From a virus, in the IMG/VR virus record IMGVR_UViG_3300037558_002528, positions 1-62,876 of that record: 62,876 bases of DNA; one strand, written 5' to 3'. The position numbers were made by a program, and so were the translations under genes. Positions 19,121-62,855 of the stretch are shown piece after piece. Under the pieces are notes generated by a model, which saw only the letters and a program-made list of their open reading frames with translations, made no database searches and was not told the origin of the DNA. Position 1 is the stretch's first letter. Each line of letters starts with the position of its first letter.

Positions 19121-19795
19121 TTAGAAGTGTTCTCTCTGCAATAGAACGACACGACCAATCACAATGCACGTCGCCTGAGTGCATTCGTGCCGGTGATAGC
19201 GCTTCTGGTCCGGGTTATCCGAAACCAGGAACCATCGACCAAAGTCGCGCACCATGCGCTTGATGATGTCTTCGCCATCAAAGTTGATCGCATAGACCTC
19301 ACCATCCTTCGGGACGGTGTCCGCGACGTTGATGACGACCGTATCCCCATCGGACATGGTTGGTTCCATACTCTCACCCTTGACCCCCACGGCGATGAGC
19401 TTGGCGGCGCTGTATCCCTTCTTAAGCAGCCATTCCTTTCGGAAAGTGATCGGACGGCCTTCGTCCGGCACCTCGATTGATTCGAAGCCGGTGATGCCGG
19501 CAGACAGTTTCAACTTCACTTTTTTTATTTCTATAAAGTCGGGGTTGTCTGGATCGTGCTCGATAACCCTGGTGTAGTTCTTCGGCAACGCGGGCGCCTC
19601 GGCCTCGCCGTAGCGGAGAAACACTTCCGACACGCCCAGGTACTCCGCCGTCAGGCGAAGATTGTCCCCTCGCGGCTCGGAAGCGCCAGCGATCCACTTT
19701 TGCACGGCCTGCGGGCTGACCCCGACGAATCGGGCCATCTCGGACTGGTTGCCACCGTTCTTGGCATTCAGTGCCTGGCGTATGCGGTCATTCAT
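19121..19795 (-). CDS. CI-like repressor, XRE HTH plus S24/LexA peptidase
   Basis: 224 residues from MNDRIRQAL. The helix-turn-helix is MARFVGVSPQAVQKWIAGAS (20-39). The C-terminal domain has the Ala-Gly autocleavage site at 99-100 (LSAGITG), the serine nucleophile S142 (KGESMEPTMSDGD) and the lysine K179 (EDIIKRM). So the protein should self-cleave with RecA after DNA damage, inducing the phage. An upstream Met at 19804 is a less likely start. It would bind the TTGTAA-type operators beside it. Confidence 0.93.
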   Translation of the reverse strand: MNDRIRQALNAKNGGNQSEMARFVGVSPQAVQKWIAGASEPRGDNLRLTAEYLGVSEVFLRYGEAEAPALPKNYTRVIEHDPDNPDFIEIKKVKLKLSAGITGFESIEVPDEGRPITFRKEWLLKKGYSAAKLIAVGVKGESMEPTMSDGDTVVINVADTVPKDGEVYAINFDGEDIIKRMVRDFGRWFLVSDNPDQKRYHRHECTQATCIVIGRVVLLQREHF

Positions 19796-19814
19796 ATTTT
19801 CCATTCTCGCGAGA

Positions 19815-19891
19815 TTACAAATAGCCGTTGTAAATTGCACTGCAAATATTGGTTGTAGAAATTCGCTCGTTGTTGTAACTTATGGTTGTAA
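19815..19891. promoter_or_regulatory. OR-like operator cluster between repressor and cro
   Basis: Three 6-7-6 sites: TTACAA-N7-TTGTAA (19815-19833), CTGCAA-N7-TTGTAG (19840-19858) and TTGTAA-N7-TTGTAA (19873-19891). One more TTACAA half-site lies at 19904-19909, against the cro start. The second site has the same arms as 18227-18245 in the left cluster. Divergent promoters for repressor and cro must lie here. Confidence 0.8.
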
Positions 19892-19911
19892 TCAACTCGT
19901 CTCTTACAACC

Positions 19912-20208
19912 ATGGACCTCATCGAAGAAACTGGCATTGCCAAGGCGGTGCGCCTTGCCGGTAGCCAAACGGCACTGGCCAACGGCATATCCCAGATTGC
20001 GGAGGCCAAGGGCGGCAAAGGCGTCACGCCTCAAGCAGTGCAGAAATGGGCCGCTCAGGGCTTTGCGCCGCCGGAGCGCTGTCGCGAAATCGAGGACTTC
20101 CTCGAGAAACGCGTTACCCGATACCAGCTGAACCCGGCCATCTTCGGTTCCGCTGAGGATGCAATTGCCGCCGCTCAGGTGCCGACAGCTGAACAGGTGC
20201 AACCGTGA
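19912..20208 (+). CDS. Cro-like (YdaS-type) regulator
   Basis: 98 residues from MDLIEETGIAKAV. The fold is VRLAGSQTALANGISQ then VTPQAVQKWAAQGFAPPERC, typical of YdaS/Cro proteins; the second helix SPQAVQKW-like motif matches that of the CI protein, implying shared operators. No Shine-Dalgarno is visible before 19912, so the message may be leaderless; an ATG at 19882 in frame adds ten residues. Confidence 0.85.
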   Translation: MDLIEETGIAKAVRLAGSQTALANGISQIAEAKGGKGVTPQAVQKWAAQGFAPPERCREIEDFLEKRVTRYQLNPAIFGSAEDAIAAAQVPTAEQVQP

Positions 20209-20522
20209 GCACCGCCGCAGACCCAGTCTCGCCGGACCTTGCGGAAATTACACGCAAGACCGGTGCACGAATTCAATCCGACATCTTGTCGCGCCTTGCA
20301 CACGTCACGCAGGAGCATGCAGCGACTTGCATGAACGTTGATCCGAGCACGGTCAGCCGCCTGAAATCCGGTCTGGACCAGTTCTGCCTGCTGCTGGCCG
20401 CCATCGGCTTCCAGGTCGCCGCCTCCGATTCCGTCGTCATCAGCCAGAAGGAGCTGTCCGGCCTGAAGTACTTGGCCGCGCGGTACCTGGAGGCCGACAT
20501 GCAGAAGGACATCCGGCTGTGA
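20205..20522 (+). CDS. CII-like transcriptional activator
   Basis: 105 residues, GTG start overlapping the cro stop by 4 bp. ARIQSDILSRLAHVTQEHAA, VDPSTVSRLKSGLDQFC and LLLAAIGFQV follow the lambda CII pattern of HTH and tetramerisation region. In lambda CII activates the repressor-establishment and integrase promoters. Confidence 0.85.
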   Translation: MSTAADPVSPDLAEITRKTGARIQSDILSRLAHVTQEHAATCMNVDPSTVSRLKSGLDQFCLLLAAIGFQVAASDSVVISQKELSGLKYLAARYLEADMQKDIRL

Positions 20523-31273: not shown

Positions 31274-31329
31274 ATTTCGCGTCACGGGGTGTTTCTGCTC
31301 GCCTGAAGGAAAGTAGAGACACCACATCG

Positions 31330-31363
31330 AAGCCTCGTTTCTCATCGGAAGCGGGGCTTTTTT
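31330..31363 (+). terminator. Intrinsic terminator before the late region
   Basis: 11-bp stem with three G-T pairs (31330-31340 with 31349-31359) and a T run. It ends the early right operon and may be the site overcome by the Q-like protein. Confidence 0.8.
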
Positions 31364-31421
31364 GTTTCCGCTTTTTCATTATTGGCCGCTCTTGCGGCTT
31401 TTTTCATTTCTGGAGCCCAGA

Positions 31422-31897: not shown

Positions 31898-31972
31898 TTG
31901 CCCTAAAGATTGCGGTGGTCGGCTGGTCTCCAAAACCGTGCAGCGGCGGTTCGAATCCGTCAGGGCATGCCA
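31898..31972 (+). tRNA. Non-canonical tRNA-Trp-like gene (anticodon CCA)
   Basis: The acceptor stem TGCCCT/AGGGCA, T-arm GGCGG-TTCGAAT-CCGTC and encoded CCA are clear. The anticodon arm GGTCTCCAAAACC is that of bacterial tRNA-Trp, with anticodon CCA at 31930-31932 and G at the discriminator position. The D-arm is odd: four weak pairs (GATT/GGTC) and a 5-nt loop; U8 is absent and the first pair is T-T. It may be a specialised or degenerate tRNA. Confidence 0.65.
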
Positions 31973-31973
31973 T

Positions 31974-32048
31974 GCAGCCGTAGCTCAGTGGTAGAGCTAC
32001 AGCCTTCCAAGCTGAGGACGAAGGGTTCGATTCCCACCGGCTGCTCCA
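31974..32048 (+). tRNA. tRNA-Gly (anticodon TCC)
   Basis: Canonical cloverleaf: acceptor GCAGCCG/CGGCTGC, D-arm TAGCTCAGTGGTAGAGCTA, anticodon loop CTTCCAA reading GGA and GGG, T-arm GGGTTCGATTCCC, and CCA encoded. One mismatch at the top of the anticodon stem. Starts one base after the previous tRNA, so the two are a unit. Confidence 0.93.
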
Positions 32049-50164: not shown

Positions 50165-50484
50165 TGCCGAACTTCTTTGAAATCCCGCTGGATCCGACGC
50201 CCCAGAAGTTCTCGGTCACGTTGGGCAACGTCACCTACCAGATGACCGTGCAGTACCGTGCAGCGGGCGGCGCAGGCTGGGTGCTGGACATTGCCGACGT
50301 GAATGGGAATTCACTGGTCAACGGCCTCCCGCTGGTGACCGGGTGCAATCTGCTGGAGCAATACGACTATCTCGGCTTCGCCGGCCGCCTTTGGGTTCAG
50401 GGTGTGGGCGATCCCGACAACACGCCCACCTATGAGGATCTGGGTGTCGGATCGCATGTGTTCTGGGTGACTGATAGCACCTGA
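50164..50484 (+). CDS. Baseplate plug protein
   Basis: 106 residues. FEIPLDPTPQKFSVTLGNVT, YQMTVQYRAAGGAGWVLDIA and GCNLLEQYDYLGFAGRLWVQ match the baseplate-plug family. The ATG shares one base with the previous stop; a GTG at 50161 is also possible. Confidence 0.8.
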   Translation: MPNFFEIPLDPTPQKFSVTLGNVTYQMTVQYRAAGGAGWVLDIADVNGNSLVNGLPLVTGCNLLEQYDYLGFAGRLWVQGVGDPDNTPTYEDLGVGSHVFWVTDST

Positions 50485-50630
50485 TCAATAAAGCAGCCTC
50501 ATTTTGAGGAAAAAAACAGGTAGTAAAGCAATAAAACCGAAAGAGGGTACCCACGGCGACACTTTTCGGGATCCGGAAAAAGAAATACTTCGGCCACGTT
50601 GATCTCGCGCGTGGCAAGCCGCAAAAGCAA

Positions 50631-50666
50631 AAGCCCGCTGATGTTGACGCATCAGCGGGCTTTCTA
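50631..50666 (+). terminator. Strong hairpin within the tail operon
   Basis: Perfect 13-bp stem (50631-50643 with 50650-50662), 6-nt loop, followed by TCTATTT. It lies in the 211-bp gap 50485-50695, which shows no other gene and appears AT-richer than the operon. It may lower expression of downstream baseplate genes or mark an insertion point. Confidence 0.75.
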
Positions 50667-50695
50667 TTTCCACCACCTATCGGAAACATAGGCAA

Positions 50696-50884
50696 ATGAA
50701 ACATGAGAAGAATTCTAGCACTCGACGGCCTGGAATCAAGCTGGCCATCGATTGGCTGAAAGGGGTCAAGATGGATATTCCATACAGTCGTTGGGTGATG
50801 TTCGCGATCGGCACCTATGTGCTGTGCGCAGCATTCGACAAGCTGGCAGCCGCGCTGTGCAGCCTTCTGCCGCTCTTGCATTGA
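50696..50884 (+). CDS. Small membrane protein in the baseplate operon
   Basis: 62 residues, or 37 from ATG 50771, which has the better AAAGGGG upstream. One membrane helix (RWVMFAIGTYVLCAAFDKLA) then a hydrophobic tail. Not a known baseplate component; perhaps a late-acquired cargo peptide. Confidence 0.5.
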   Translation: MKHEKNSSTRRPGIKLAIDWLKGVKMDIPYSRWVMFAIGTYVLCAAFDKLAAALCSLLPLLH

Positions 50885-50891
50885 GGTCACC

Positions 50892-51866
50892 ATGAGCACG
50901 ATGCAATACGGCCGAAAGGTATCGCTGATCGTCGGCCAGGATGCTGGTGCAGCGCTGGACCTGTCGGAGTTGCGCATCGTGTTCGACGTGAGACGCGGCG
51001 ACCTGCAGACTCCAAATTCGTTGCGCGCGCGCGTCTACAACGTCTCGGAAACCACCCGACAGCGTATCGAGCGGGAGTTCACGCGCATCGTGCTGCAGGC
51101 GGGCTACGAGGGCAACTTCGGCATCATCTTCGATGGCACCATCAAGCAGGTCCGGCGTGGCAGGGAAAACCAGACGGATACCTACCTGGACATCACGGCG
51201 GCCGATGGTGACAGCGCCTACAACTTCGCGGTGGTGAATACCTCGCTGGCAGCGGGGTCGACGCTTGATCAACGCGTCAGGGCCGCTTGTACTGCCATGG
51301 AACCTTTTGGCGTGAGCCTCGACTACATGTTCGAAGTGCCGAAGAACCCGCTGCCGCGCGGCAAGGTTATGTTCGGCATGGCCCGGGACTTCATGCGGGG
51401 TGCGGCACGCACGGCGCAGGCGGTGTGGAGCATTCAGGACGGCAAGGTGCAGCTGGTGCCGGAGACCTCATACCGGCCCGGGAACATCCCGGTCATCACA
51501 TCGGAGACGGGCATGGTCGGCCTGCCGGAGCAGACCCAGAATGGCATCACGGTCAAGATGCTGCTTAATCCTTACGTGAAGATCAGCCAACTGATCTGGT
51601 TGGACAACGCCAGCATCCAGCGCTATGAATACAGCCTGAATACGCAGCAGCAGGCGCAGAACTTCCGGGTGGGGCTGCAGGCAAAGATTCAAGATGACGG
51701 CTTTTACTACGTCATGACGGCCGAGCACCACGGGGATACACGCGGACAGGACTTCTATACAGACGTCATCTGCCTGGCAGCCGATGTTACGGTACTGCCC
51801 GACAGCTTCAAGGATAAGCACACGGTGCCGCCTGCAGATGTGGCCATCATCAAGAAGTTCGGTTAG
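50892..51866 (+). CDS. Baseplate hub protein
   Basis: 324 residues from MSTMQYGRKV. LDLSELRIVFDVRRGDLQTP, LRARVYNVSETTRQRIEREF and ETGMVGLPEQTQNGITVKML suit the gp44/gp27-like hub family of contractile tails. Lies between plug and spike genes. Confidence 0.8.
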   Translation: MSTMQYGRKVSLIVGQDAGAALDLSELRIVFDVRRGDLQTPNSLRARVYNVSETTRQRIEREFTRIVLQAGYEGNFGIIFDGTIKQVRRGRENQTDTYLDITAADGDSAYNFAVVNTSLAAGSTLDQRVRAACTAMEPFGVSLDYMFEVPKNPLPRGKVMFGMARDFMRGAARTAQAVWSIQDGKVQLVPETSYRPGNIPVITSETGMVGLPEQTQNGITVKMLLNPYVKISQLIWLDNASIQRYEYSLNTQQQAQNFRVGLQAKIQDDGFYYVMTAEHHGDTRGQDFYTDVICLAADVTVLPDSFKDKHTVPPADVAIIKKFG

Positions 51867-55963: not shown

Positions 55964-57025
55964 TTACTTATGGCTAAGTGCCGGTGCGGCCTGTAAAGAA
56001 TGCGCTCGGTGCTCTCCGTACAATGCCGCGCTTAAGATAGAACTTCGGCGCAACACGAAATACAGGCCGAGTGAAAAGGCGATGGCAAATGTGGTCATCG
56101 AGATAGCTTTTGTCCATCCGCCTCCAAAGTAGAGCGGGAACATTCCGAGACCAGTGAAACTGAAGTGGGCAACATACACCGGCAACGTCAGCCTACCCAG
56201 TTTTGCAAGCCATTTTGAGGCACGGGTGCTCTGAAGGCCGTAAAGAACTGCCCAGGTGCAGAGCATCGCAAGCAATGGCAGGCCGATGATATAGGTTTTA
56301 TCTACCCAGATCTTGCGAGAGCCTACCAACTCTATGATGTGTGCTGGCAATAATGGGACATCGTAGAACTGCCAATAGGGGAGCAACACCATGTATGCGA
56401 AACCTGCGACAGCGGCGGTCAGCCAGTTGAATCGGCCGAACGAACTGAGCCACGCTTGATACTTCGCAACCGTGTAACCAGCAATGAAAAAGGGGAAGTA
56501 CCAACTGACGTAGACCAGCGTACCCGGTAACGGCCACGCCTGGTACTTTCTGTCGAGCACGATGTAAAAAGCGATAAATGCGAAAGTCTCCAGCGCAGAG
56601 GAAACGCGTGGGCTTCGAAAAAAAAATGACGACGCATTGTGAATTAGCCAAGCCATCGCCTGGATGAGAAAAAGCACCAAGAGAAACCACACGTAGTCTG
56701 GGCCGTGAATCCACGTATTCAGATAGTCGAGCAAAGTGGAATTCTTAAATTTTCCGTACAGCAGATACCCGAGTAACACCCAGGTAGCGCAAGGCAAAAG
56801 CAGTGAGAATGCCTTACGTCGGATGAAGTCCGGCGTCTCGAATCGGCCATATGCAGTGAAGCCAGCAAGAAGCATGAAAAATGCCACGTGATAGGTATAG
56901 ATGACCTTTCCGATAATCCCGGCGGGGATTATGTGTCCGGCCACAACCAGCAAGATGGCAAAGCCTCGCAAACTATCGAGAAGTCCGTTTCTTTCGTTAT
57001 CAGCCACTATTTCCCCGACCCTCAT
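55964..57025 (-). CDS. Acyltransferase-3 family membrane protein (lysogenic conversion)
   Basis: 353 residues with about ten membrane helices. LLDSLRGFAILLVVAGHIIP contains the conserved R and H of the OafA/acyltransferase-3 family, and YTYHVAFFMLLAGF the second His. Its stop abuts the fibre-assembly stop, and it reads against the late operon with AT-rich DNA and its own upstream region. Such phage genes O-acetylate surface polysaccharide, which changes serotype and blocks further adsorption. Confidence 0.88.
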   Translation of the reverse strand: MRVGEIVADNERNGLLDSLRGFAILLVVAGHIIPAGIIGKVIYTYHVAFFMLLAGFTAYGRFETPDFIRRKAFSLLLPCATWVLLGYLLYGKFKNSTLLDYLNTWIHGPDYVWFLLVLFLIQAMAWLIHNASSFFFRSPRVSSALETFAFIAFYIVLDRKYQAWPLPGTLVYVSWYFPFFIAGYTVAKYQAWLSSFGRFNWLTAAVAGFAYMVLLPYWQFYDVPLLPAHIIELVGSRKIWVDKTYIIGLPLLAMLCTWAVLYGLQSTRASKWLAKLGRLTLPVYVAHFSFTGLGMFPLYFGGGWTKAISMTTFAIAFSLGLYFVLRRSSILSAALYGEHRAHSLQAAPALSHK

Positions 57026-58766: not shown

Positions 58767-58944
58767 CTAAGAGGGTTGCGGTGGGCAAATTCGCAGCACA
58801 TATCGACAGGAATTTCAACATTAAAAACCGAAGTAGATTAATGGAGACCGACCCGCGAGCTGCATGGGGAGGAGATGGATCAATCGTGACCAACTTGACC
58901 ACGGTTCAGCCTGTGCGCCAGGGCTGCCTCACCATCACGATGTG
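58767..58944. other. Intergenic, nothing recognised
   Basis: 178 bp after the lysis genes. No promoter, terminator or gene was clearly visible. Confidence 0.5.
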
Positions 58945-59391
58945 TCAGCTTTTCTTGCGAGATTTTGGCGCTACTGGATCTTTGCCGAGGTGCTTGATGA
59001 GAGCCATTTTGTCGACCTTAACTGAGGTCTTTTCCCTGTAAAAATCACTCAATTTTTTGGCCTCAGGTTGGCGCAAGCTGCTTGAAACCATATCGGGCGT
59101 CACGATGACGTTTTCGAACGCGACCGTTGGCTTGGAAATTACCTTCCGGATAGCCCTCAGGTGCTCATCCACCTCGTCCCAAGATTGAGGATAGCCGCTG
59201 GAGTCCAGAATCACTCGAACAAGGGGGGCCCCGTGCTTCTCGGTCGGCATTGTCGTAAATGAATCAGTCAGGCGCGCGATGATCTCCGCATTCAGACTGC
59301 GACCAACCGCATCGGCAGCTTGCTGAAGGGCGTCCCGAAGTTCATCCGTCATGCGGAGCGGGTAGGGGGCTTTTTGGTGGCGGTCGGTCAT
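58945..59391 (-). CDS. Arc-type ribbon-helix-helix regulator
   Basis: 148 residues. KAPYPLRMTDELRDALQQAA then AVGRSLNAEIIARLTDSF is the Arc/MetJ ribbon-helix-helix. About 95 further residues form an additional domain (YPQSWDEVDEHLRAIRKVIS). Its start lies 3 bp from a TAGA/TCTA palindrome (59394-59408), so autoregulation is likely. Divergent from a second Arc-like gene. Confidence 0.85.
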   Translation of the reverse strand: MTDRHQKAPYPLRMTDELRDALQQAADAVGRSLNAEIIARLTDSFTTMPTEKHGAPLVRVILDSSGYPQSWDEVDEHLRAIRKVISKPTVAFENVIVTPDMVSSSLRQPEAKKLSDFYREKTSVKVDKMALIKHLGKDPVAPKSRKKS

Positions 59392-59393
59392 GG

Positions 59394-59465
59394 GTTAGAT
59401 TATCTAACTGACGCCAAAAAGAATCAAGATTCCACTTGACTCTAGAATCATGTGGATTCTATGAT
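59394..59465 (+). promoter_or_regulatory. Divergent operator/promoter of the immI-like region
   Basis: Promoter for 59512: -35 TTGACT (59436-59441), 18-bp spacer, -10 TATGAT (59460-59465). The spacer carries TAGAATC-N5-GATTCTA (59443-59461). Further elements are GAATC-AA-GATTC (59421-59432) and GTTAGATTATCTAAC (59394-59408). P22 Arc also binds between the -35 and -10 of its ant promoter. Confidence 0.8.
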
Positions 59466-59511
59466 GATGTTTATGCGGTGCTGATTCCGCGTTACGACCG
59501 AAAGGATAACC

Positions 59512-59676
59512 ATGAAGAAACAGGCGGCACCTTACCCCCTGCGCCTTCCGCCGGATCTGCGGAGCTGGGTTGAGCAGTGCGCTGAGAAAGAGGCGCGAAG
59601 TGTGAATAATTTCCTCATCTTGCTGGTTTCACAAGCAAAAGAGGCGATGGCATCGACTGCAAATGCGGCGCAATAA
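59512..59676 (+). CDS. Short Arc-like ribbon-helix-helix protein
   Basis: 54 residues: AAPYPLRLPPDLRSWVEQCA then RSVNNFLILLVSQAKE. The size of P22 Arc. AAAGGATAACC precedes the ATG. Reads divergently from the longer Arc-type gene, like the arc-mnt arrangement. Confidence 0.8.
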   Translation: MKKQAAPYPLRLPPDLRSWVEQCAEKEARSVNNFLILLVSQAKEAMASTANAAQ

Positions 59677-59681
59677 AAGAA

Positions 59682-59716
59682 AACCCCGAACAAGCTTGGC
59701 GGCCAGGTTCGGGGTT
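59682..59716. terminator. Hairpin after the small Arc-like gene
   Basis: 10-bp stem AACCCCGAAC/GTTCGGGGTT, 15-nt loop. On the minus strand it is followed by TTTTCTTTTA, so it may end a minus-strand RNA such as an antisense RNA; on the plus strand the T run is missing. Confidence 0.5.
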
Positions 59717-59745
59717 AATAGTGAACCCATCAGAAAGGAAACACT

Positions 59746-59901
59746 ATGCAAGATCATAGTACGCCGGCGGACGCCGGTCAAACTCAGCGCGAGCAGCGCG
59801 TCATTCGAACCACGGATGGCGGCCGTTTCTCCAAGCAATCCCGCGAGCTGCTTGCGCGAGCCTATGCCGTCCTGGCGCTGACTGGAGGCCGTCATGAGTA
59901 A
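59746..59901 (+). CDS. 51-residue protein, function unknown
   Basis: MQDHSTPADAGQTQREQRVI... with AAAGGAAACACT before the ATG; it overlaps the next gene by 8 bp. Central FSKQSRELLARAYAVLAL could be helical. Probably a small regulator. Confidence 0.55.
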   Translation: MQDHSTPADAGQTQREQRVIRTTDGGRFSKQSRELLARAYAVLALTGGRHE

Positions 59902-60190
59902 CGTCGCCTCCATCAAGAAGATGGTGTCCGGCTCCAAGGTCGTCTCGCGCTACGGCGTGCACGCCTCTCACAGCGGAAACTGCACGCGCGTTGAGCAAAG
60001 CTTCGTCGCCCAGGGGCCGGCAGAAACGGCGGCAAACAAGGCTGCGCAGTTGCAGGCCTTGCTCCACATGACCTACGGAGAACAGGATTCTGCCTTTTCC
60101 CGCATGAACGAAGAGCTCCGGGACAACCTGATGTGGCTTGCCGCGGATCTGAGCGGCCAAATCCGCGTGCTGTGCGACTTGGCGAAGTGA
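59894..60190 (+). CDS. Hypothetical protein of the immI-like operon
   Basis: 98 residues from MSNVASIKKMVSGSKV. The C-terminal half is helical (NKAAQLQALLHMTYGEQDSA). Sits between the small regulators and the Rha gene, 7 bp before it. No domain recognised. Confidence 0.6.
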   Translation: MSNVASIKKMVSGSKVVSRYGVHASHSGNCTRVEQSFVAQGPAETAANKAAQLQALLHMTYGEQDSAFSRMNEELRDNLMWLAADLSGQIRVLCDLAK

Positions 60191-60197
60191 GGGCACG

Positions 60198-60806
60198 ATG
60201 ACGACTATTCAATTGGCAAATATCCAAGGTGAGGCGCGGGTGGATACCCGTGCAATGGCCGATCACCTTGGCAGGCAGCACCATAGCGTCTATAAGATGG
60301 TGAAAGACTACAAAGCCGACTTCGAGCAGCTCGGAATACTTCGATTTGAAATCGAAGAAATGGGAGGTAAGCGCGGGCAGCCTGAAAAGTACGCCATGCT
60401 GAACGAGGATCAGTGCTACCTGCTGCTGACCTTCTCGCGTAATACAGCGAAAGTCCGGCAATTGAAGGTCAATTTGGTGAGGGCCTTCAAACAGGCCCGC
60501 CTGGGCCAGAAACATACTACGGCGCGGGACCGCCTGCCGATGCAGCACAAGGTTCTGGAAATTGGCGTTGACCGTCGCGTTTCGCCCACAGTAGTGCAGG
60601 CGAACGTGAACCGCTATATGGGTGTCCGCCGCAGCCGGTACGCGTCGATGTTGCAGCTGGAGCAGGGCATTGGCCTTTGTGATAGATATCTCTCGCGCAC
60701 CGAAACCGCTGAGGACCAAAAGTGCATCAGCGAGAACCACGATGCCTTGTATGGCGAGTCGCGACAACTTTGCCTTCTCACCCTGGCGTATGTGCCTGAT
60801 CGTTAA
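60198..60806 (+). CDS. Rha-family phage regulatory / antirepressor-like protein
   Basis: 202 residues. The N-terminal 95 residues are the Rha domain: VDTRAMADHLGRQHHSVYKM, EEMGGKRGQPEKYAMLNEDQ, CYLLLTFSRNTAKVRQLKVN and LVRAFKQAR. The C-terminal half is unrelated to the common Ant partner domains as far as I can see. Rha/Ant proteins control lytic growth or antagonise repressors. Confidence 0.85.
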   Translation: MTTIQLANIQGEARVDTRAMADHLGRQHHSVYKMVKDYKADFEQLGILRFEIEEMGGKRGQPEKYAMLNEDQCYLLLTFSRNTAKVRQLKVNLVRAFKQARLGQKHTTARDRLPMQHKVLEIGVDRRVSPTVVQANVNRYMGVRRSRYASMLQLEQGIGLCDRYLSRTETAEDQKCISENHDALYGESRQLCLLTLAYVPDR

Positions 60807-60822
60807 GTCACAGCAGAACCAG

Positions 60823-60859
60823 GCCCCGAGCTTCCCGCGTGGAGGCTCGGGGCTTTTTT
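60823..60859 (+). terminator. Intrinsic terminator after the Rha gene
   Basis: GCCCCGAGC/GCTCGGGGC 9-bp stem (60823-60831 with 60845-60853), 13-nt loop, six T. Separates the immI-like operon from the LexA-box gene. Confidence 0.9.
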
Positions 60860-60947
60860 GCGTTCCTGCTGTCGTATCGGCTACAGCTTGTAAAGCGGAA
60901 ATATCGGCTGTGGCTTATGAGGCAGCCTATCTCTGCAGGTGTGGATA

Positions 60948-61376: not shown

Positions 61377-62597
61377 CTATGCAACCAGGTGCAGCGGCGG
61401 CCTGGCGGCTTCAACCAGCCGATCGATGTAATCTGACCAGTCCTGCATCATCTTGGTCCGCTCTGCGAGAAACTTGGCACGGTCGTATGCTTTATCCACC
61501 TTATTGCCCTTGGCGTGCGAGAGCTGCAGGTCCACTACCTCATGCCGATAGCCAAGCTCCTGCTTGAGCACGCCCATGGCAAGAGACCGGAAGCCATGCC
61601 CAGTCATCCTGCCGCCATAGCCGATGTTCTCCAGCACTTTCAGGATTGCACCGTCCGACATGTGGGTATCCGGACGGCGCTGGTTTGGGAAGACAAATTG
61701 GTGTCGTCCTGAAATTGGCTGCATCTCTCGGAAGAGTGCAACGCATTGCCAGGAGAGGGGTACCACGTGGCCGCGCCCCTTTTTCATCCGCTCAGGTGGA
61801 ATATCCCATACCGCCTTATCCAGATCCGGCTCCGTCCAGGGCACAGCGATCAGCTCGGTTGTCCGGACGAATGTCCTCATCATCAGCCACAGAGCTACCC
61901 GCGTGGCCGGGAACATGTGGTGCTTGCTGTTGACCAGGTCCTTGATGAACTGGGGAAATTCCTCGACGGTGATCGACGCGAAGTGGCCCTTCTTGGGCTT
62001 TTTCATCACGTCCTTGAGCGCGGCAGCCGGGTTGCCCTGGGTATCGCCGCAGACAATTGCAAAATTGAAAATACGGGCAACCATGCCACGGCAGCGGCTG
62101 GCGATCTCCAGTGCGCCGCGCTTCTCGATCTCGCGGAAGACCAGCAGCAGGCGCTGGGGGGTGATCTTGGCAATCGGATCCTGGCCGATCACAGGGAAGA
62201 CATCGGTCACAAGGCGATGCAGGTTCTCTTTCGCCGTGCCATCGCCCCATTCATCGCTGGCGGCCATGTGCGCATGCCACTCCCTGGCCACCACCTCAAA
62301 CGTTCGGGCCTGGGCCACTACTTGGGCGATCTTGCTGATCTGTTTCTCGACTGCAGGGTCATTGCCAGCCTTCAACATCCGGCGGGCGTCTTCCCATTTT
62401 TCCCTGGCATCGGCCAGCGAGACATCCGGATAGGTGCCCAGAGAAAGAGACTTTTGCTTGCCCCCGAACCGGTAAGCCCCAGTCCAGTACTTGCCGCCGC
62501 CAGGGTGGACTGACAGGGATAGTCCGCGCGCGTCGGACAACTTGTAGAGCTTTTCTTTCGGCTTTGCAGCACGGCATCCGGCGTCGGTAAGGGGCAT
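61377..62597 (-). CDS. int: Tyrosine integrase, P4-type
   Basis: 406 residues. N-terminal DUF4102 arm-binding domain (MPLTDAGCRAAKPKEKLYKL, KSLSLGTYPDVSLADAREKW), core-binding domain, then the catalytic domain: R in FVRTTELIAVPW, H-G-F-R in MTGHGFRSLAM, second His in QLSHAKGN, Tyr in DKAYDRAKFL. Integrates the phage at tRNA-Ser and excises it with the AlpA-like protein. No strong ribosome binding site; upstream repeats look like arm sites. Confidence 0.95.
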   Translation of the reverse strand: MPLTDAGCRAAKPKEKLYKLSDARGLSLSVHPGGGKYWTGAYRFGGKQKSLSLGTYPDVSLADAREKWEDARRMLKAGNDPAVEKQISKIAQVVAQARTFEVVAREWHAHMAASDEWGDGTAKENLHRLVTDVFPVIGQDPIAKITPQRLLLVFREIEKRGALEIASRCRGMVARIFNFAIVCGDTQGNPAAALKDVMKKPKKGHFASITVEEFPQFIKDLVNSKHHMFPATRVALWLMMRTFVRTTELIAVPWTEPDLDKAVWDIPPERMKKGRGHVVPLSWQCVALFREMQPISGRHQFVFPNQRRPDTHMSDGAILKVLENIGYGGRMTGHGFRSLAMGVLKQELGYRHEVVDLQLSHAKGNKVDKAYDRAKFLAERTKMMQDWSDYIDRLVEAARPPLHLVA

Positions 62598-62760: not shown

Positions 62761-62778
62761 TTGGCGGAGACGGAGGGA
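62761..62778. repeat. attR core, 18-bp direct repeat
   Basis: Identical to 2474-2491. It covers the encoded CCA end and 3' acceptor-stem/T-arm part of tRNA-Ser, so integration leaves the gene intact on this side. Confidence 0.95.
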
Positions 62779-62855
62779 TTCGAACCCTCGATACAGGTTT
62801 AAGCCCGTATGCTTCCTTAGCAGGGAAGTGCCTTCGACCACTCGGCCACGTCTCC
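62762..62855 (-). tRNA. tRNA-Ser (anticodon GCT)
   Basis: 94 nt including the encoded CCA. Anticodon arm CTTCC-CTGCTAA-GGAAG, long class II variable arm ATACGGGC...CCCGTAT, T-arm GAGGG-TTCGAAT-CCCTC, acceptor GGAGACG/CGTCTCC. Reads AGC and AGU. Integration site of the prophage. Confidence 0.97.

What the first reader, a model, noticed from the sequence alone, without database searches (positions are those of the whole stretch)
58945..60806. Second immunity locus resembling P22 immI
Two divergent Arc-type genes, a promoter whose -35/-10 spacer holds the TAGAATC/GATTCTA palindrome, two small genes and a Rha/Ant-like protein reproduce the arc-mnt-ant logic of P22. Both operators contain TAGA/TCTA elements as in the Arc operator. 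So the phage seems to have two regulatory circuits.
Basis: partly seen in the sequence, partly recalled or inferred. Interest (0 to 1): 0.7.

Follow-up and report, generated by a model that had tools for sequence, protein, structure and literature searches.

The report
P22-type antirepressor-control cassette carrying Rha

Summary
The anatomy is real. Homologous DNA in sister phage WC36-2 has the same RNA in front of a true P22-type ant gene. In the window that ant is missing: the 51-codon ORF is the ant start joined to a downstream micro-ORF. Sister phages carry the cassette about 8 kb away between tail genes, so it moves ('ant moron'). Across about 16 such cassettes the RNA stays while the antirepressor changes (P22_AR_N, BRO-N, AntA, Rha). 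Both Arc proteins of a cassette tend to share DNA-contact residues (identical APYPLR here), predicting a shared GAATC operator, CI/Cro-like. The main repressor is a separate C1/Cro/CII locus at 19.1-20.5 kb. Not a strict immI member (no ant); a new variant. That Rha is the antirepressor is inferred, not shown.

The parts
58945..59391 (-). arcL: 148-aa ribbon-helix-helix (Arc/Mnt-type) repressor, mnt position
   Evidence: PF03869 E 6e-9; nearest PDB sequence pArc/Arc/Mnt; closest named phage relative is the Mnt-like gene of the Edwardsiella phage Edno5 immI region
59394..59408 (.). palindrome GTTAGATTATCTAAC over the -10 and start of the leftward promoter
59399..59427 (-). leftward promoter-like site TTGATT-17-GATAAT; predicted start lies on the arcL ATG (leaderless transcript, inferred)
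59420..59461 (.). four GAATC/GATTC half-sites spanning the leftward -35 and the rightward promoter (a fifth at 59483); predicted shared operator
59436..59465 (+). rightward promoter TTGACT-18-TATGAT with TAGAATC-N5-GATTCTA in the spacer (59443-59461)
59512..59676 (+). arcR: 54-aa Arc-type repressor, arc position
   Evidence: PF03869 21.1 bits (cut-off 20.4); weak PDB match to Arc
59678..59745 (-). sar-like antisense RNA (about 68 nt): 5' hairpin covering the Shine-Dalgarno of ORF51, then terminator hairpin with T-run
   Evidence: fold z -4.5; covariance model built without the window gives 17.3 bits, E 0.01, second best in the window; homologous to the WC36-2 site, which Rfam sar hits at 30 bits
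59753..59781 (-). Psar-like promoter TTGACC-17-TATGAT, conserved in WC36-2
59746..59901 (+). ORF51: first ~14 codons match the start of the WC36-2 ant gene, the rest matches the 27-aa micro-ORF that follows ant there
59894..60190 (+). ORF98: unknown small protein, start overlaps the end of ORF51
   Evidence: no Pfam match, no phage match
60198..60806 (+). Rha-family protein (pRha N-domain, own C-domain), 85% identical to Rha of the WC36-2 cassette
   Evidence: PF09669 E 3e-16
60821..60855 (+). intrinsic terminator closing the cassette
19121..19840 (-). C1-type main repressor (HTH_3 + Peptidase_S24): the first regulatory circuit
19909..20522 (+). Cro/YdaS-like (19909-20208) and CII-like (20205-20522) genes of the main immunity locus
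61377..62597 (-). integrase next to tRNA-Ser (62762-62855): right end of the prophage

Best explanation
An ant-moron / immI-type cassette, mobile within this phage group. In the lysogen ArcL (mnt role) holds the rightward promoter off. On infection, or when repression fails, the arcR-ORF51-ORF98-Rha operon is transcribed. ArcR then shuts the operon down through the same GAATC-type operator that ArcL uses, and the sar-like antisense RNA blocks the ribosome-binding site behind arcR, so that only a short pulse of the antirepressor-type protein is made. In this phage the P22-type ant has been lost (start codons fused to a downstream micro-ORF), and the last antirepressor-type gene of the operon is Rha, whose translation would depend on coupling through ORF51/ORF98. 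Shown by sequence: gene order, promoters, palindromes, RNA fold and conservation, homology to an intact sister cassette, relocation, separate C1 locus. Inferred: binding, RNA expression, coupling, and that Rha acts on the C1 circuit.
For: Arc pair and Rha. Sister cassette in WC36-2 and three IMG/VR contigs: arc-arc-ant(P22_AR_N E 3e-40)-micro-ORF-Rha; DNA homology across RBS, ATG and Psar 82.6%, E 5e-14, and Rha 81%. P22 sar ends at the base before the ant ATG (L007 532-599, ant 600); same register in the window and WC36-2. Antisense promoter followed by terminator: 0 of 2000 shuffles. RNA structure over 14 relatives without the window: 90% cells paired, 10 of 18 pairs with changes on both sides, 0/500 shuffles, slid controls 39-55%. 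Cassette elsewhere in sister phages: window-equivalent 50472/50903. Antirepressor exchange: BRO-N, pRha, AntA, P22_AR_N behind the same RNA. Loci in which the RNA faces a small ORF followed by an antirepressor: L146 (Rha), L144 (AntA+KilAC, right after lysozyme-Rz as in the window), L139 (BRO+KilAC). Shared recognition strand: identity at Arc positions 9 and 11 within a cassette 0.53 vs 0.21 permuted, P 2.5e-4, n 15; five divergent Arc pairs without sar show none. Roles of mnt, arc, sar, ant in P22: PMC11016777, PMC2629481.
Against: Rfam's sar model does not report the window's RNA; R1 ranks another intergenic site (31286-31364 +) higher, so the RNA call rests on position, promoter and homology more than on the model score. 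No ant domain remains. Rha is known for an IHF-dependent block of growth and is called an antirepressor mainly by annotation (PMC4936722). Translational coupling over two ORFs is not demonstrated. No expression data.
Confidence: 0.7

Rival explanations
1. Decaying ant moron: deletion of ant left the repressors, the RNA and a bystander Rha; the cassette no longer acts on the lysis-lysogeny choice.
For: ORF51 is an ant start joined to a downstream micro-ORF; degraded ant morons are known in P22-like phages (PMC2629481).
Against: Both Arc frames, the promoters, the RNA and Rha are intact and Rha is 85% identical to the sister copy; cassettes with a small ORF at the RNA and an antirepressor further down recur (L139, L144, L146).
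Confidence: 0.22
2. The cassette is a moron with another job (for example superinfection exclusion or interference with other prophages); Arc/sar merely keep a growth-inhibiting Rha low.
For: Rha proteins of phi80/P22 inhibit phage growth in IHF-deficient hosts (PMC4936722); the cassette sits outside the immunity region and moves.
Against: Sister cassettes carry a bona fide Ant behind the same controls, and other cassettes AntA, BRO-N or KilAC proteins.
Confidence: 0.25
3. The antisense RNA is an ordinary terminator or a member of the Betaproteobacteria toxic sRNA family (RF02278).
For: RF02278 is the best Rfam match at the site, full length, 24.7 bits.
Against: Below the gathering score of 50; none of 30 strong RF02278 loci from Burkholderiales has arc, ant or Rha nearby; the promoter, start-codon register and homology to the WC36-2 sar match are specific.
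Confidence: 0.1

Closest known systems
P22 immI region (mnt-arc-sar-ant, X01916.1)
   Same: divergent ribbon-helix-helix repressors, operator in the spacer of the rightward promoter, about 68-nt two-hairpin antisense RNA ending at the start codon behind arc, separate C2/C1-type main immunity
   Different: no ant (P22_AR_N); Rha at the end of the operon with two small ORFs between; promoters not overlapping; other operator; both Arc proteins share the recognition strand; located between lysis genes and integrase
'ant moron' of P22-like phages (Villafane et al. 2008, PMC2629481)
   Same: inserted independent transcription unit in the late region, variable content, degraded ant in some
   Different: different phage group; found at two different places in sister phages; Rha present in both
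Phage WC36-2 cassette (OL791266.1, L001) and matching IMG/VR contigs
   Same: arcL, arcR, sar-like RNA with Psar, micro-ORF, Rha (85% aa)
   Different: has ant, lacks ORF98, lies between tail genes, different Arc recognition strand and operator words (GTGAC-type)
Edwardsiella phage Edno5 immI (PMC6372524)
   Same: closest named relative of ArcL; mnt-arc-ant among late genes
   Different: ant present, no Rha
Rha proteins of phi80/P22 (PF09669)
   Same: pRha N-terminal domain
   Different: there a late-operon gene under IHF control; here behind Arc/sar control

Membership tests
P22 immI region | two divergent Arc/Mnt-type repressors | tested here: met
   PF03869 for both, divergent
P22 immI region | operator-like palindrome inside the rightward (ant) promoter | tested here: met
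   TAGAATC-N5-GATTCTA between the -35 and -10; binding not testable
P22 immI region | overlapping mnt and ant promoters | tested here: not met
   annotated overlap in P22; here sites at 59399-59427 (-) and 59436-59465 (+)
P22 immI region | sar antisense RNA over the ribosome-binding site behind arc | tested here: met
   by position and anatomy: two hairpins, Psar, terminator, register, homology to the WC36-2 site; by Rfam score not met, see next family; expression not testable
P22 immI region | ant gene with P22_AR_N behind arc | tested here: not met
   no P22_AR_N in the window cassette; only the first codons of an ant-like start remain
P22 immI region | acts on a separate C2-type main repressor | tested here: inconclusive
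   C1 with HTH_3 + S24 present; interaction not testable
Rfam sar RNA (RF00262) | score above gathering cut-off | tested here: not met
   no match in 58900-60900 up to E 5 nor in 59660-59800 up to E 1; sister WC36-2 30.0 bits, cut-off 43
Rfam Betaproteobacteria toxic sRNA (RF02278) | score above gathering cut-off | tested here: not met
   24.7 of 50 bits; contexts differ
Phage_pRha (PF09669) | pRha domain above curated cut-off | tested here: met
   60.2 vs 29.9 bits
Phage_pRha (PF09669) | IHF-dependent growth inhibition or antirepressor activity | not testable with these tools
   needs an experiment

The most novel reading that the evidence does not exclude
The unit that evolves as a whole is the regulatory chassis, not ant: a mobile pair of Arc repressors that read one common operator (a ribbon-helix-helix version of the CI/Cro switch) plus a sar antisense RNA, into which unrelated antirepressor domains (P22_AR_N, AntA, BRO-N, Rha) are swapped; in this phage it drives Rha through translational coupling to a sar-controlled leader ORF.
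Probability: 0.45. Interest if true: 0.65.

Novelty: new variant of a known kind. Interest (0 to 1): 0.5.

Why it matters
It extends sar-type antisense control beyond P22-like enterobacterial phages to Burkholderiales and Pseudomonas prophages and to antirepressors unrelated to Ant. It offers a clean natural comparison, the same cassette with ant and without it, for asking what Rha does. It also makes a testable prediction that the two repressors of a cassette share one operator.

Tried and rejected
Close-relative scans with ArcL (viral contigs) and Rha (genomes) found nothing, so a broader Rha alignment was used. RF02278 as the identity of the RNA: rejected on score and context. RF00262 scans of Pseudomonadaceae and Burkholderiales gave many weak hits that are plain terminators without arc genes; only those with an arc gene, plus L123, were used. 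P22_AR_N in Burkholderiales is rare (5 of 300 genomes), and in the fetched loci not beside arcs. The window's own R1 hit at 31286-31364 was checked: no arc pair and no facing start codon. ORF98 versus the L144 small ORF looked alike by eye, but BLASTP found no match. The MAFFT alignment misplaced the 5' hairpin in the first set; a larger set and a hand-written structure were used instead. Divergent Arc pairs without an antirepressor (L141, L143, L145, L147, L148) have no sar-like RNA and served as controls.

Full report
Check of the observation. The 62.9-kb window is an IMG/VR virus record, a prophage whose right end is an integrase (61377-62597 -) beside tRNA-Ser. Left of it, after the endolysin and Rz genes, lie two divergent Arc-domain genes (58945-59391 - and 59512-59676 +), two small ORFs and a Rha-domain gene, closed by a strong terminator. 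The palindromes are real and beyond chance: two perfect 7-bp inverted repeats where 0.04 are expected (P 0.006), and five GAATC/GATTC words in 120 bp (0.6 expected; P 0.009 allowing for any 5-mer). The rightward promoter's spacer holds one palindrome, and the leftward promoter's -10 is covered by another. The predicted leftward start falls on the arcL ATG, so its mRNA may be leaderless (inference).

What was missed. On the - strand a promoter (TTGACC-17-TATGAT, 59781-59753) is followed by an RNA that would start at the base before the ORF51 start codon and end in an intrinsic terminator just behind arcR. In P22 the sar RNA ends at the base before the ant start codon (X01916.1: sar 532-599, ant 600). 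The window RNA folds into a 5' hairpin over the ribosome-binding site and a terminator hairpin (z -4.5). A promoter followed by a terminator at this spacing appeared in 0 of 2000 shuffles.

The sister cassette. Phage WC36-2 (83.8% identical over much of the right half of the window) and three IMG/VR contigs carry the same cassette: arcL, arcR, sar-like RNA, a 227-aa Ant with the P22_AR_N domain (E 3e-40), a 27-codon micro-ORF, and Rha 85% identical to the window's. Rfam's sar model hits the WC36-2 RNA at 30.0 bits (below its cut-off of 43), directly before the ant ATG. DNA homology to the window spans RBS, start codon and Psar (82.6%, E 5e-14) and Rha (81%), but not ant. The window's ORF51 consists of the ant start (MQDHSTPADAGQTQ vs MRHHSLPAHAGQIQ) continued by the micro-ORF (FSKQSRELLARAYAVLA vs FSKQSAELLGRAYALLA). 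So ant has been lost here, or was gained there. In the sisters the cassette lies between tail genes at window-equivalent 50472/50903, about 8 kb from its place in the window: it moves. This is what P22 workers call an ant moron (PMC2629481).

How general it is. A scan of bacterial genomes with a Rha alignment and family searches gave further cassettes in Pseudomonas and Burkholderiales: arc-arc-RNA followed by BRO-N then Rha (L020), Rha then Rha (L068), P22_AR_N (L122), AntA (L124, L136), BRO-N (L149), small ORF then AntA+KilAC directly behind lysozyme-Rz (L144), small ORFs then Rha (L146), and arc-arc-Rha-RNA-ORF-BRO+KilAC (L139). L126 has a Cro/C1-type repressor in the mnt place; L123 has the RNA between two AlpA-like genes. 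On 14 such RNAs, window excluded, a two-helix structure is kept in 90% of cells with 28 both-sided changes (0/500 shuffles; slid controls far lower). A covariance model from them finds the window RNA at 17.3 bits, E 0.01, second in the whole window. That is supportive but not decisive on its own. Rfam sar does not report the window RNA. The best Rfam match, RF02278 at 24.7 of 50 bits, is a widespread Burkholderiales sRNA; none of 30 loci examined has arc, ant or Rha nearby.

One operator for two repressors. ArcL and ArcR of the window share the strand APYPLR. In Arc, residues 9, 11 and 13 of this strand contact bases (established knowledge of the Arc-operator structure; not tested here). Over 15 sar cassettes, identity at positions 9 and 11 is 0.53 within a cassette against 0.21 when partners are shuffled (P 2.5e-4), while the helices differ little (0.33 vs 0.30). 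Five divergent Arc pairs without sar show nothing (0.10 vs 0.12). The cassettes are related and few, so the P value is indicative. The natural reading is that both proteins of a cassette read the same half-site, here probably GAATC, so repressor and autoregulator would compete for one operator, as CI and Cro do.

Mechanism. P22: Mnt represses arc-ant, sar RNA binds ant mRNA, Arc represses mnt and moderates ant, and Ant binds the C2 repressor (PMC11016777). By analogy, in the window ArcL keeps the operon off in the lysogen. When it is on, ArcR and the antisense RNA limit output to a short pulse. Because the RNA covers only the ORF51 start, control of Rha would need coupling through ORF51 (overlaps ORF98) and ORF98 (ends 8 bases before Rha). 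Cassettes L139, L144 and L146, with a small ORF at the RNA and the antirepressor further down, show that this layout is not unique. The presumed target is the C1/Cro/CII locus at 19.1-20.5 kb. Rha as antirepressor is an inference: Rha proteins are known for blocking growth in IHF-deficient hosts (PMC4936722).

Verdict. It works like immI but is not filed as a member, because the ant gene was looked for and not found. It is a new variant of a known kind.

Noticed in passing
window 31286-31364 (+): Intergenic two-hairpin element scores 33 bits (E 5e-7) with the sar-type model, higher than the cassette's own RNA, but no arc pair or facing start codon is near; may be a free-standing phage sRNA or only a terminator.
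   Followed up: partly
window 50472-50903: Moron hot spot between tail genes: sister phages carry the arc-sar-ant-Rha cassette here; the window carries a short stretch with a terminator and a small hydrophobic ORF instead.
   Followed up: partly
window 31898-32048: tRNA-Trp and tRNA-Gly genes in tandem inside the prophage.
   Followed up: no
window 55964-57025 (-): 353-aa multi-membrane protein on the opposite strand at the end of the tail genes, by eye an acyltransferase-3-like surface-modifying moron; no family search made.
   Followed up: no
L123 (about 2396-2966 on the reverse strand): A sar RNA at Rfam's cut-off (43.0 bits) sits between two AlpA-like regulator genes with a divergent RHH-like gene instead of an Arc pair.
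   Followed up: partly
L126 2221-2688 (-): A Cro/C1-type HTH repressor replaces Mnt in an arc-sar-ant cassette.
   Followed up: partly
L019 (Edno5) 2687: The annotated ant start codon of Edno5 lies inside what looks like the sar terminator hairpin; the true start is probably further downstream.
   Followed up: no
Burkholderiales genomes: RF02278 toxic sRNA is present above cut-off in 75 of 200 Burkholderiales genomes, up to 9 matches in one genome; none of 30 loci lies near arc/ant/Rha.
   Followed up: partly
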